Shown: positions 54,055 through 58,451 of the stretch, piece after piece
How positions within the stretch are numbered: position 1 is the first letter of the stretch
Layout: each line of letters begins with the position of its first letter
Assembly (NCBI GenBank): GCA_947494975.1
Contig: CANLXA010000003.1
Span: 806,001-870,000 of the forward strand
Source of the DNA: an uncultured Roseicyclus sp.
GTDB taxonomy: Bacteria; Pseudomonadota; Alphaproteobacteria; Rhodobacterales; Rhodobacteraceae
Direction of reading: 5' to 3'
Length of the DNA: 64,000 nucleotides
Translations under genes and position numbers: made by a program
Notes under the pieces: model-generated
The model's input: only the letters and a program-made list of their open reading frames with translations
Told to the model about the DNA's origin: nothing
The model's database searches: none

Positions 54055-54480
54055 ATGCCGCTTTCATTCGAGATTTTTCCCAAACGCGGCCTTGCCGTGA
54101 TCACCTATTCCGGGGTGGCGGGCATCGCCGAGACCGGCGAAGTCTTCGCCCAATACGCGGCCCATCCCGATGCGGCGCCGGGGCAGAAACACCTGCTGGA
54201 CCTGTCCCGTGTAACGGATGTGGAGCAGGATTTTCTGCGCCTGATGGCGTTTCAGGCGCGCGCGGCCGGCGCAGTCGGGCAACCCGTCATGCCGGCGATG
54301 CTGGTCTACTATGCGCCCACGCCGATCTCCCAAAAAATGGCGAACATGGCCTACCGCAGTTGGAATGGCGTGGGGGATATCGCCTTGGCCGTGGTGGCCG
54401 ACGAGGCGGAGGCCTTGGGCCTGGTCGGCTGTTCCGAAACGCGGATCGCCGATCTCAAACGCCGCGTCGCCGAGGAGTGA
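54055..54480 (+). CDS. Conserved hypothetical protein, SpoIIAA/STAS-like size
   Basis: A 141-residue soluble protein with no signal peptide and no membrane segments. LSFEIFPKRGLAVITYSGVA and HLLDLSRVTDVEQDFLRLM alternate strands and helices in a way reminiscent of SpoIIAA-like STAS domains, but I find no decisive motif. It follows mmsA after a terminator and converges with the EF-hand gene, separated by a small GGCCC-AGA-GGGCC hairpin. No function proposed. Confidence 0.7.
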   Translation: MPLSFEIFPKRGLAVITYSGVAGIAETGEVFAQYAAHPDAAPGQKHLLDLSRVTDVEQDFLRLMAFQARAAGAVGQPVMPAMLVYYAPTPISQKMANMAYRSWNGVGDIALAVVADEAEALGLVGCSETRIADLKRRVAEE

Positions 54481-54512: not shown

Positions 54513-55304
54513 CTAGTGGCTCAGGTATTCCAGCAAGCTGACGCTGCCGGACCGGTCGATATCGTATTGCGCCAATTCGGCGCGGCCCTCGGCCTCGAAC
54601 CCGCAGGTCGCCGCGATGCCGGGAAGCGCTTCAGCCTCTAACTGGGCCAGGCAGGCGGCGCTCAGGGTGAGCTCTTCGTCGGCCATCGCCTCCGCATCCT
54701 GGGACAGCCAGTAAAGCTCCGCCCCCACAATCTCATCGACGGTCAGCATGCCGTTCTCATCGAAATCGGCATCGAGGAATTCCTCGGCCCGATCCCGCAA
54801 CATGATGGCCTCGAATTCCGGGTAGGACACGGCACCCGAGCCATCGGCATCGGCGCGGCCGAGTTGCTCGGCCGCAAAGGCGGCCAGCGTGCAGGGTTCG
54901 GACATTGCCGCACAATCCGGCTCCGCGCGCCATCCGTCAGCGGCGGCGAAGGCCTCGATTTCCGGGCCTGTGATCTGGTCGTCGCCATCGGCGTCGACCT
55001 CGGCGAAGAAAATGCGAATCTCGGCGCTGGCCGTTGCCGTGGATTGGGCCGAGAGCAGGTAGACGAAGGCCAGCGCGATGATCGGCAGGGCAATGATGGC
55101 GCCGCGCCAAAGGCGGGCTGAAGTGGCTTTGAGCATGATCGTATCTCCGGGGGTTGGGGGTGAAACCCGCCCCGCCACTTCCCCTTCGATCAGGTCGCGC
55201 ACCGTTTCGGACATCGTGCGCCCCTTGCCATCGCTGACCCGCGACAGGGCGGATTTCAACTCGGGCGAGACACGGATTTCGATGCTTTCGGTCTTCTTGG
55301 ACAT
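54513..55304 (-). CDS. Membrane protein with ribbon-helix-helix domain and four EF-hands
   Basis: A 263-residue protein. Residues 5-45 read as a ribbon-helix-helix DNA-binding domain (IEIRVSPELKSALSRV, MSETVRDLIEGEV). One membrane helix lies at 68-86. The remainder, predicted periplasmic, has four canonical 12-residue EF-hand loops starting at D104 (DADGDDQITGPE), D152 (DADGSGAVSYPE), D180 (DFDENGMLTVDE) and D248 (DIDRSGSVSLLE). Cysteines at about 131/138 and 218/234 could form two disulfides. An internal ATG at 55134-55136 (Met57) has GGAG 8 nt upstream and may give a shorter form without the RHH. A calcium-sensing, membrane-bound regulator is plausible. Confidence 0.8.
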   Translation of the reverse strand: MSKKTESIEIRVSPELKSALSRVSDGKGRTMSETVRDLIEGEVAGRVSPPTPGDTIMLKATSARLWRGAIIALPIIALAFVYLLSAQSTATASAEIRIFFAEVDADGDDQITGPEIEAFAAADGWRAEPDCAAMSEPCTLAAFAAEQLGRADADGSGAVSYPEFEAIMLRDRAEEFLDADFDENGMLTVDEIVGAELYWLSQDAEAMADEELTLSAACLAQLEAEALPGIAATCGFEAEGRAELAQYDIDRSGSVSLLEYLSH

Positions 55305-55446
55305 GGCATGCGGCCTTCTTCACGAACAGCAAGGGCGGGGTCGGCCAGATCATGCTGACTACACCGCCGCCTCCAATATAGGCCCATTCGCGCCCCGACG
55401 GGACAGATTTCGTGTCCGGACAGGTTGTTTTGCTGGCTGTCCGGGC

Positions 55447-55478
55447 AAAAAAGAGCCCCCGGAGGGAGGTCCGGGGGC
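55447..55478 (-). terminator. Rho-independent terminator of the small exported protein gene
   Basis: On the minus strand GCCCCCGGA (55470-55478) pairs with 55455-55463, and TCTTTTTT follows (A-run 55447-55452 on the plus strand). It sits 30 bp after the stop of the 54-codon gene. A second stem, CCGGACAG (55416-55423) with CTGTCCGG (55437-55444), lies just beyond. Confidence 0.75.
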
Positions 55479-55507: not shown

Positions 55508-55672
55508 TTAGCGGCTGGCCCAAGGGGTTCCGGGCGGAGCGACGCCATCGATCTGGGCGGTCAGGCCGCCATCAAACCGGGTGTTTTCGGGGCGCTGTTC
55601 GGTGGCCTGTGCGGCGGCGCCAAAGACAAAGCTGCCAAGGACGGCGATGGTGAGGATCGAGCGGATCAGCAT
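55508..55672 (-). CDS. Small exported protein, 54 aa
   Basis: ATG 55670-55672 is preceded by AAGGA at 9 nt and encodes a 54-residue protein: a signal peptide (MLIRSILTIAVLGSFVFGAA, cleavage about AQA) then a mature peptide of about 30 residues ending PPGTPWASR. The frame ends with TAA at 55508-55510 and a good terminator follows. Its signal peptide, ribosome site and terminator all support a real gene. Function unknown; no homologue recognised. Confidence 0.65.
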   Translation of the reverse strand: MLIRSILTIAVLGSFVFGAAAQATEQRPENTRFDGGLTAQIDGVAPPGTPWASR

Positions 55673-57091: not shown

Positions 57092-57469
57092 ATGTATCGT
57101 GCCGCTGCCATCGTGATCGCGCTTGTCGCCGCTCTTCACCTTTACATCGCGTGGTTCGAGATCTTCGCCTGGACCACACGGGGGCCGGTTGTCTTTTCCT
57201 CCTTCCCGGAGGATCTGTTCGAGCCGACAATTGCGCTGGCGGCCAATCAGGGGATCTACAACGCGTTTCTTGCGGCGGGCCTGATCTGGTCTCTGCTGAT
57301 CCGCGACACGACATGGCGGATCAATGTCGGCGCGTGTTTCCTGATTTTCGTGGCAATCGCCGGGATCTTCGGGGCGATTACCGTCTCGCCCCGGATCATG
57401 GTTGTGCAGACCCTGCCCGCTGCCGTTGGGCTGGTTTTGCTTGTCCTGGCCAGCCGCCGAAAGGCCTAG
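57092..57469 (+). CDS. DUF1304 membrane protein
   Basis: A 125-residue protein with four predicted helices, recognisable by ALHLYIAWFEIFAW in helix 1 and ALAANQGIYNAFLAAGLIW in helix 2, typical of DUF1304. ATG 57092 is favoured by AGGAG seven nt upstream; an ATG at 57062 would overlap the ligase gene by 4 nt. Function of the family is unknown. It converges with the VPLPA-CTERM gene, overlapping by 4 nt. Confidence 0.88.
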   Translation: MYRAAAIVIALVAALHLYIAWFEIFAWTTRGPVVFSSFPEDLFEPTIALAANQGIYNAFLAAGLIWSLLIRDTTWRINVGACFLIFVAIAGIFGAITVSPRIMVVQTLPAAVGLVLLVLASRRKA

Positions 57470-58119
57470 CGGCGCTTACGTAGAGCGATCAAGCCGCCAA
57501 GCCCCAAAACCAACATCCAGCCAGCGGCGGGCAGCGGCACCGGGGTGGGGCCGCCGAACGCGACGTCGCTCGTCACATTGCCATCGTCAAGACGCTGAAA
57601 CCGGACCGCGAATGGCCAGGAGTTGTTACCCCCTTGTGAAACGAGGTCGAGAAAGCTGCTTTCGGTCAGGGAGGCCAGCAAGCCCGCATCACCCAAAAGC
57701 TTGAACGTGAACGTGCCGGTGGTGTTAACGGCAATGCCCGAATTTGGGGAGCCTCCGTTAAGATTAGGTCCTGTGATCCCACCGACGTCAAAAGAGCCGT
57801 TGGATCCCGGCGTGTTTACACCGTCAGGATCGAAGTCTGCCCCCCAATCGCCATCGTTCTGCGTGCCACTCGCGGAAAATGCGGCAACGCCGGTCACGAT
57901 TGTCGGCGCATTGAACGCGAAGCCCGTAATCCGAGGGTCCGTCGAGTTGGACGCGGTGTTAAGGATCCCGATCGTGAGCGTATCCACACCGTCGTAGGAA
58001 AAATCGATTGTCGCGGTCGTGTTGGACGAACTGACACCGATAACACCAAATGTAACAGCATTGACGGCCCCAGATGCCATCATTCCAACGCTCAAAGCAG
58101 CAGCAAAAAGTAGTCTCAT
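57466..58119 (-). CDS. VPLPA-CTERM secreted protein, second in the window
   Basis: A 217-residue exported protein: signal peptide (MRLLFAAALSVGMMASGAVNA), a Thr/Asn/Asp-rich beta domain (SSNTTATIDFSYDGVDTL, GSFDVGGITGPNLNGG) and the C-terminal sorting signal VPLPAAGWMLVLGLGGLIAL with RKRR. ATG 58117-58119 is used; an ATG two codons earlier is possible. Surface or matrix protein likely. GC is lower than in the flanks. Two palindromes lie in the gap upstream. Confidence 0.85.
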   Translation of the reverse strand: MRLLFAAALSVGMMASGAVNAVTFGVIGVSSSNTTATIDFSYDGVDTLTIGILNTASNSTDPRITGFAFNAPTIVTGVAAFSASGTQNDGDWGADFDPDGVNTPGSNGSFDVGGITGPNLNGGSPNSGIAVNTTGTFTFKLLGDAGLLASLTESSFLDLVSQGGNNSWPFAVRFQRLDDGNVTSDVAFGGPTPVPLPAAGWMLVLGLGGLIALRKRR

Positions 58120-58451
58120 TATCATCCACCCACAGCGCTCAAGCGCCGAACAAAGTACTTCCAAGCTCTATATATTAGCGTCTGCCACATTTTCGCCACA
58201 AGCCCCTTGCTACGAACCTGTCCAAAAGGACATGTATTGACCCCTGTTTTGTGAACAAAACAGCGACAATCGCCGCCTCTGTTTCACCTCAGGAGCGGTT
58301 TGGGAGCCAAATCGACACGGATTCGCGGCAAGACACGCAGTCTAGGGGAGGCTCAAGCCAACGAACTTAGGATCAGTCACTGCAATCAGCTTGAAACATT
58401 GCTGAAAGACTCGTTAATTAAACAAGCGTTCAATTCTTGCGGGAGGGATAT
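58120..58451. other. AT-richer gene-free region with palindromes
   Basis: About 330 bp with visibly lower GC. It holds TGTCCAAAAGGACA (58219-58232) and CTGTTTTGTGAACAAAACAG (58244-58263), both perfect inverted repeats, close together upstream of the VPLPA-CTERM gene. No convincing gene. Confidence 0.6.
58244..58263. promoter_or_regulatory. 20-bp perfect inverted repeat
   Basis: CTGTTTTGTGAACAAAACAG has 9-bp arms around GA. It is about 125 bp upstream of the VPLPA-CTERM start and about 190 bp before the small membrane ORF. It could be an operator; the regulator is unknown. Confidence 0.5.

What the first reader, a model, noticed from the sequence alone, without database searches (positions are those of the whole stretch)
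54513..55304. Membrane protein joining a ribbon-helix-helix DNA-binding domain to four EF-hands
All four EF loops have the canonical D-x-D-x-[DSN]-x(6)-E spacing, and paired cysteines support a periplasmic location, while the N-terminal 45 residues read as an RHH domain on the cytoplasmic side. This would be a one-component calcium-sensing regulator with a ToxR-like layout, an architecture I do not know as described. An internal start (Met57, with its own GGAG) could make an EF-hand form without the DNA-binding part.
Basis: partly seen in the sequence, partly recalled or inferred. Interest (0 to 1): 0.8.

Follow-up and report, generated by a model that had tools for sequence, protein, structure and literature searches.

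The report
Self-regulating gene for exported calcium-binding protein
One bacterial gene joins a small DNA-binding domain to a calcium-binding part that looks exported from the cell, and distant relatives keep nearly the same repeated DNA site in front of this gene, so the protein most likely controls its own production.

Summary
[quoted passage not shown] The fusion is conserved: 16 full-length rows (window included; the others 28-98% identical) plus a more distant one (L100), in several families of its class; 8 of 295 genera sampled in its own family carry it.

First, 16 of 16 upstream regions hold TGTCCGGACACGAAA or a variant (0-4 mismatches), with a second, degenerate copy 22 bp downstream. 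The tandem site occurs once in 12 of 16 carrier genomes, always at this gene, and 22 of 22 EF-hand-only proteins lack both the RHH and a site within 3 mismatches. This points to binding of its own promoter, probably autorepression. Second, the internal Met57 start is kept with a GGA-containing ribosome site in 16 of 18 sequences. It would begin a form with a signal-peptide-like start.

So I read it as one gene with two nested products: a regulator-bearing long form and an exported EF-hand form. A ToxR-like calcium sensor remains possible but is not shown. No binding, expression or topology was measured; no paper listed in ten searches describes this fusion.

The parts
54513..55304 (-). CDS of the long form, 263 aa plus stop
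   Evidence: 16 full-length rows
55167..55304 (-). RHH DNA-binding domain, residues 1-46
   Evidence: RHH_1 in 10 of 15 N-termini at E up to 1; window below cut-off; helices 14-27, 31-43
55144..55148 (-). internal Shine-Dalgarno GGAGA before Met57
   Evidence: at least GGA in 16 of 18 sequences, GGAG in 13 of 18
54513..55136 (-). nested ORF of the proposed short form, from Met57
   Evidence: internal ATG in 17 of 18 sequences; absent in L054; in the broken copy L020 it is out of frame with the rest
55023..55136 (-). signal-peptide-like segment, residues 57-94, ending ATASA; holds the only strongly hydrophobic stretch
   Evidence: hydropathy; invariant A92; [AVS]-x-A by eye output
54960..54995 (-). 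EF loop 1, residues 104-115
54816..54851 (-). EF loop 2, residues 152-163
54732..54767 (-). EF loop 3, residues 180-191
54528..54563 (-). EF loop 4, residues 248-259
55408..55422 (-). operator repeat 1, TGTCCGGACACGAAA (perfect 10-bp palindrome TGTCCGGACA inside)
55386..55400 (-). operator repeat 2, degenerate copy (5 mismatches) exactly 22 bp downstream
55433..55447 (-). possible third, weaker upstream repeat TGCCCGGACAGCCAG (25 bp upstream)
55375..55380 (-). possible -10 element TATATT, five bases after repeat 2
   Evidence: read by eye; a sigma-70 consensus scan found no promoter

Best explanation
This is a self-contained, autoregulated gene with two nested products. Translation from the first ATG gives a long form: RHH domain, short linker, hydrophobic segment, four-EF-hand domain. 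Translation from the internal Met57 gives a short form that begins with what looks like a normal Sec signal peptide, so the EF-hand domain goes to the periplasm, where it can bind Ca2+ and form disulfides. RHH dimers of the long form bind the tandem TGTCCGGACACGAAA sites (22 bp apart, about two helical turns, same face of the DNA) over the gene's own promoter and most likely repress it. Because the long form carries the same export signal, its repressor part is probably drawn to the membrane as the EF-hand part is exported, so repression would track how much protein is made relative to how much is exported or loaded. Shown here: architecture, conservation, the site and its restriction to this gene, and the conserved internal start. 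Inferred: that RHH binds the site, that binding represses, that both forms are made, and that export or Ca2+ changes the activity.
For: RHH and EF parts stay fused in 16 of 16 full-length rows down to 28% identity. In the own family these score E 3.6e-51 or better, against 1.8e-18 for the next, EF-only, match. Operator: TGTCCGGACACGAAA with 0-4 mismatches in 16 of 16 upstream regions, 95-164 nt before the ATG. At +22 the mean mismatch to the same motif is 5.44 over 16 sequences; the next best of 90 offsets tried is 8.62 and the overall mean is 11.18. The exact site is in 8 of 295 genera, 6 of them directly upstream of this gene (8 of the 295 carry the gene); the other 2 equal the reversed-pattern control (2 genomes); hypergeometric p 9e-10. 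The tandem site occurs once in 12 of 16 carrier genomes, all 12 at this gene, reversed control 1. Of 22 EF-hand-only loci of the same family, 0 have the RHH and 0 have a site with 3 or fewer mismatches. RHH strand residues T5, E9 and R11, which alternate with hydrophobics, are invariant. Each of 16 carriers has one match to this RHH at E 1e-3. Internal start: ATG in 17 of 18 sequences in a variable linker, GGAG in 13 of 18 and at least GGA in 16 of 18, kept with different amino acids (G-D, G-E, M-E, R-T). Summed anti-SD energy over 14 rows is beyond all 1000 synonymous recodings (-88.9; null mean -54.8, minimum -79.5); Fisher p 8e-4. Signal peptide: one hydrophobic segment, invariant A92, [AVS]-x-A by eye in the 16 rows; many of the EF-only proteins start with a similar stretch.
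Against: No binding, expression, topology or proteomic data. The window's RHH domain scores below Pfam cut-offs. Per-sequence synonymous-recoding p-values are modest (0.02-0.41) and the rows are related. L054 lacks the internal Met and L100 has it without a Shine-Dalgarno, so the nested start is not universal and could be a fusion relic. In 7 of 16 sequences with both sites, the first start pairs better with the anti-Shine-Dalgarno than the internal one. L100 lacks the paired cysteines of the EF part. Some sites are weak: L054 has 4 mismatches, a level reached or bettered by 29 of 902 background windows, and the second copies in L006 and L100 have 7. The tandem pattern missed 4 of 16 carrier genomes at 3 mismatches. 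L100 escaped the full-length search at E 1e-20, so the gap to other proteins is less sharp outside the family. No sigma-70 consensus promoter was found, so repression rather than activation is an analogy. The signal peptide was judged by eye and hydropathy, without a dedicated predictor or a control for alanine-rich ends.
Confidence: 0.62

Rival explanations
1. ToxR-like one-component calcium sensor: the long form stays uncleaved in the inner membrane, periplasmic EF-hands sense Ca2+, and the signal passes through the single helix to the RHH dimer, which switches its own promoter.
For: Layout RHH, one hydrophobic helix (62-88 in the model), four EF-hands; own-promoter site; conserved linkage.
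Against: The hydrophobic segment ends in a signal-peptidase-like motif and has modest hydropathy in several rows (best 19-mer mean 1.4-2.4). The internal start would make copies without RHH. External Ca2+ is high and steady in seawater (recalled).
Confidence: 0.25
2. Export-coupled autorepressor: the signal sensed is export itself. When Sec export of the EF-hand domain lags, uncleaved long form stays soluble and represses; when export runs, RHH is tethered or removed.
For: RHH joined to a signal-peptide-like segment in 16 of 16 rows and L100; single-gene regulation. Trifunctional PutA shows that an RHH protein can swap between DNA and membrane (abstract of PMC5293562).
Against: No direct test; membrane tethering need not stop DNA binding (CadC is a membrane-integrated regulator that binds DNA; abstracts).
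Confidence: 0.3
3. Fusion relic: an RHH gene was joined in front of an ordinary secreted EF-hand gene; only the short EF-hand protein matters now, and the internal start is the old gene start.
For: Met57 with Shine-Dalgarno and signal-peptide-like segment looks like the start of the EF-only secreted proteins of the family; the first start has a weak Shine-Dalgarno in several rows.
Against: The RHH part has 11 invariant residues of 46 against 13 of 169 in residues 95-263, and its putative site is conserved across families. The long frame is open in all 16 rows of A2.
Confidence: 0.08
4. The upstream repeats are bound by an unrelated regulator, and the RHH domain serves only for dimerisation.
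For: Co-conservation does not identify the binding protein.
Against: The site is at control level outside carrier genomes and elsewhere in carriers; an unrelated regulator would be expected to have other targets.
Confidence: 0.1

Closest known systems
Trifunctional proline utilization A (PutA)
   Same: N-terminal RHH domain fused to an unrelated functional part; autogenous repressor; switch between DNA-bound repressor and membrane-associated enzyme (abstract of PMC5293562).
   Different: PutA carries enzyme domains and associates with the membrane reversibly; this protein has a signal-peptide-like segment and EF-hands, and a nested start.
ToxR/CadC-like membrane one-component regulators
   Same: Cytoplasmic DNA-binding domain, one hydrophobic helix, exported sensor-like domain (search listing and abstracts).
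   Different: They use a winged helix-turn-helix (recalled); here the DNA-binding fold is RHH, the segment looks cleavable, and the only tandem site found is at the own promoter.
Caulobacter CaBP (periplasmic EF-hand protein with the sigV circuit)
   Same: Sec-exported EF-hand protein of an alphaproteobacterium in a regulatory loop (abstract of PMC13171946).
   Different: 133 aa with three EF-hands; the abstract mentions no DNA-binding domain, and regulation runs through the sigma factor SigV.
EfhP of Pseudomonas aeruginosa
   Same: Bacterial EF-hand calcium sensor (search listing and abstract starts only).
   Different: Two EF-hands; no DNA-binding domain is mentioned in the abstract starts seen.
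Eukaryotic DREAM/KChIP3
   Same: EF-hand protein that acts as a Ca2+-dependent transcriptional repressor (recalled; a paper on KCNIP repressors appeared in the listing).
   Different: Eukaryotic, without an RHH domain or export signal (recalled).

Membership tests
Ribbon-helix-helix (CopG/Arc/MetJ) domain | About 45 residues: one strand with alternating hydrophobic residues, then two helices | tested here: met
   Helices 14-27 and 31-43 (strand not formed in the monomer model), strand pattern 5-11, RHH_1 in 10 of 15 N-termini at E up to 1; the window's own score is below cut-off (14.7 of 20.5 bits)
Ribbon-helix-helix (CopG/Arc/MetJ) domain | Binds short repeated operators as dimers | tested here: inconclusive
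   Tandem 22-bp-spaced site co-conserved with the gene; binding and dimerisation not testable here
EF-hand superfamily | 12-residue loops between helices | tested here: met
EF-hand superfamily | Ca2+ binding | not testable with these tools
   Needs biochemistry
ToxR-like one-component regulators | Winged helix-turn-helix DNA-binding domain (recalled) | tested here: not met
   The N-terminal domain is RHH
ToxR-like one-component regulators | Uncleaved single transmembrane helix | tested here: inconclusive
   One hydrophobic segment, but a signal-peptidase-like end
PutA | Proline and P5C dehydrogenase domains | tested here: not met
   None among the Pfam matches of the window protein
Lanmodulin | NCBIfam NF053806 curated cut-off (135 bits) | tested here: not met
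   27.9 bits
XopAW family | NCBIfam NF041410 curated cut-off (120 bits) | tested here: not met
   32.7 bits, residues 84-195 only

The most novel reading that the evidence does not exclude
A single gene carries its own export-coupled feedback: the repressor is the N-terminal part of the exported protein, a nested start makes the bulk calcium-binding product, and repression is set by how much of the long form is pulled to the membrane or loaded with Ca2+. This would be a self-contained control unit of a kind not seen in the papers listed by the searches.
Probability: 0.3. Interest if true: 0.85.

Novelty: new variant of a known kind. Interest (0 to 1): 0.66.

Why it matters
It joins two things usually kept apart: a transcription factor domain and an exported calcium-binding protein. 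If the nested-start autorepressor holds, one gene measures and limits its own exported product without any partner gene. The unit is small and has a defined operator, so bacterial calcium or export sensing at the envelope becomes directly testable with one promoter fusion.

Tried and rejected
Regulon: exact TGTCCGGACA occurs at 3 places in the own genome, against 5 for the reversed control (about 4 expected by my arithmetic). With 1 mismatch over 15 bases, 16 carriers gave 11 sites at this gene and 5 elsewhere (one of those exact, in G010), against 6 for the reversed control, so no regulon was claimed. The nine loci around off-target sites hold no match to the RHH profile at E 1 (the longer listing was cut). 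Weaker or differently arranged sites were not searched.

Partner gene: neighbours in 13 loci were compared by eye and by BLAST. They are shared within Roseicyclus and partly with G118; G112 and G122 share flanking genes with each other. No immediate neighbour common to all was seen. In the window the gene is flanked by a terminator-like site upstream and a convergent gene downstream; in G112 a same-strand gene follows about 180 nt later, so single-gene transcription is not shown everywhere.

Mobile origin: protein searches of plasmids and phages gave no match; the collections may leave out near relatives.

Lanmodulin and XopAW: below curated cut-offs. Foldseek and VIA lists dominated by calmodulin test only residues 89-263; the RHH part was not searched by fold. 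A sequence-profile search of solved structures with the RHH gave only weak matches (best E 0.019). Searches covered one genome each and add nothing. Genome searches score only a few candidates per genome, so carrier counts are lower bounds. L020/G008 is a broken copy in a metagenome-assembled genome and was left out of A1 and A2, but its N-terminus is in A3 and its start region in the 18-sequence count. L100 was found later and is not in A2. L002 (98% identical to the window protein) is in A2 but not (recoding test).

Searches, with ribbon-helix-helix and EF-hand, gave 0 papers. The other listings showed only the top rows of up to 507 papers; no listed title or abstract start described this fusion. 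Only open-licence papers are held. Of two papers I saw the abstract and outline, of the rest listings only.

Full report

Conservation. Same-genus relatives (named Roseicyclus in the records of L017 and L018) and genera of the same family carry the full protein: 8 of 295 sampled genera, with full-length matches at E 3.6e-51 or better, while the next, EF-only, matches are at 1.8e-18 or weaker. A class sample of 385 genomes gave 4 full-length matches at E 1e-20, two of them in other families, G037 and G522. The RHH profile on the same sample found one more with the same order, G487 (L100), which that search had missed, plus weaker matches; of those I looked at four, and none had the EF-hands. 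Named records outside the genus are Thalassovita mediterranea and Nitratireductor sp. XY-223. All 16 rows of alignment A2 contain the RHH part; identity to the window protein is 28-98%. Each of 16 carrier genomes has a single match to this RHH at E 1e-3 (one of them, G008, carries a broken copy).

EF-hand proteins without RHH. The family is rich in them: 194 of 295 genomes match the profile at E 1e-6, mostly over the EF part only. Of 22 such loci examined, 0 contain the RHH and 0 have an upstream site with 3 or fewer mismatches (best 4, in 3 of 22). Many begin with a signal-peptide-like stretch. They look like ordinary secreted EF-hand proteins. The fusion gene probably arose by placing an RHH domain in front of such a gene (inference), and the RHH and the operator go together.

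Operator. Upstream of the gene lies TGTCCGGACACGAAA, with the palindrome TGTCCGGACA inside. In 16 upstream regions (15 genes plus L100) the best match has 0 mismatches in 8, 1 in 1, 2 in 5, 3 in 1 and 4 in 1. In 902 background windows of 200 nt, with operator-bearing ones not removed, 10 had 3 or fewer mismatches and 19 had 4, so the 4-mismatch site of L054 is not significant alone. A second, more degenerate copy (4-7 mismatches) lies at +22 in 14 and +21 in 2. As a control for spacing, mean mismatch at +22 over the 16 sequences is 5.44, against 8.62 for the next best of 90 offsets and 11.18 overall. Among 295 genera the exact 15-mer occurs in 8, of which 6 have it directly upstream of this gene; the two others (G061, G162) equal the reversed control (2 genomes). 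The hypergeometric p is 9e-10. The tandem pattern occurs once in 12 of 16 carriers and always at this gene; 4 carriers are missed at 3 mismatches. Proteins about 30% identical thus keep nearly the same DNA site, although most neighbouring genes differ between genera. The simplest reading is that the RHH domain binds it. A 22-bp spacing puts two dimers on one face of the DNA (inference). Repression is inferred from how RHH proteins usually act (recalled; PutA abstract).

Nested start. In a linker of otherwise variable sequence, an in-frame ATG is kept in 16 of 17 sequences and also in L100; in the broken copy L020 it is out of frame with the hydrophobic part. A Shine-Dalgarno GGAG precedes it in 13 of the 18, a weaker GGA or GGGA in 3 more (L028, L029, L030), and none in L054 and L100. 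The Shine-Dalgarno is kept while the encoded residues change (G-D, G-E, M-E, R-T). In a synonymous-recoding test over 14 rows the summed pairing energy was -88.9, against a null mean of -54.8 and minimum of -79.5 in 1000 trials; single-row p-values are 0.02-0.41 and Fisher's combined p is 8e-4. The rows are related, so these figures are approximate. The internal site pairs better than the first in 9 of 16 sequences, the window included (-6.6 against -4.1), and the first is better in 7.

Export. The short form would start MLKATSARLWRG, followed by a hydrophobic core and SAQSTATASA, the pattern of a Sec signal peptide (recalled rule). Position A92 is invariant in 16 rows, and by eye each of the 16 sequences offers an [AVS]-x-A cleavage motif there. 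The exported part is strongly acidic (net -20 to -46). In the 8 two-cysteine rows the cysteines sit one in each of the two long EF linkers, as expected of a disulfide in the periplasm (inference). L100 is an exception: its only cysteine is in the RHH part.

Mechanism and rivals. I take the gene as an autoregulated unit with a long regulator form and a short exported form. How the long form is switched is open: by export or tethering (0.3), by calcium in a ToxR-like way (0.25), or only by its own concentration. These are variants that overlap with the autoregulation claim, so the confidences do not sum to one.

Novelty. EF-hand proteins, RHH autorepressors and membrane one-component regulators are known. 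I found no paper joining RHH and EF-hand (0 papers; 2 papers, neither relevant by title and abstract start). I file it as a new variant of a known kind.

Noticed in passing
window 57466-58164 (-): ORF whose translation ends in VPLPAAGWMLVLGLGGLIALRKRR, which looks like a VPLPA-CTERM sorting signal (recalled motif); no Pfam match at E 0.01 for residues 16-232.
   Followed up: partly
window 55508-55672 (-): 54-aa ORF with a signal-peptide-like start just upstream, similar in Roseicyclus relatives and followed by a terminator-like site at 55455-55478; no Pfam match.
   Followed up: partly
L020 3001-3391 (same genome as G008): Broken copy of the gene in a Roseicyclus metagenome-assembled genome: RHH part and hydrophobic part lie in different frames, while operator repeat 1 is intact.
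   Followed up: no
L010, L011, L015, L016: Same-genus genomes also encode small secreted-looking proteins of about 90 aa with EF-hand loops and no RHH.
   Followed up: no
window 54055-54480 (+): 141-aa protein convergent with the gene, weakly STAS-like (E 0.0072, below cut-off), with similar ORFs in the loci of three relatives.
   Followed up: partly
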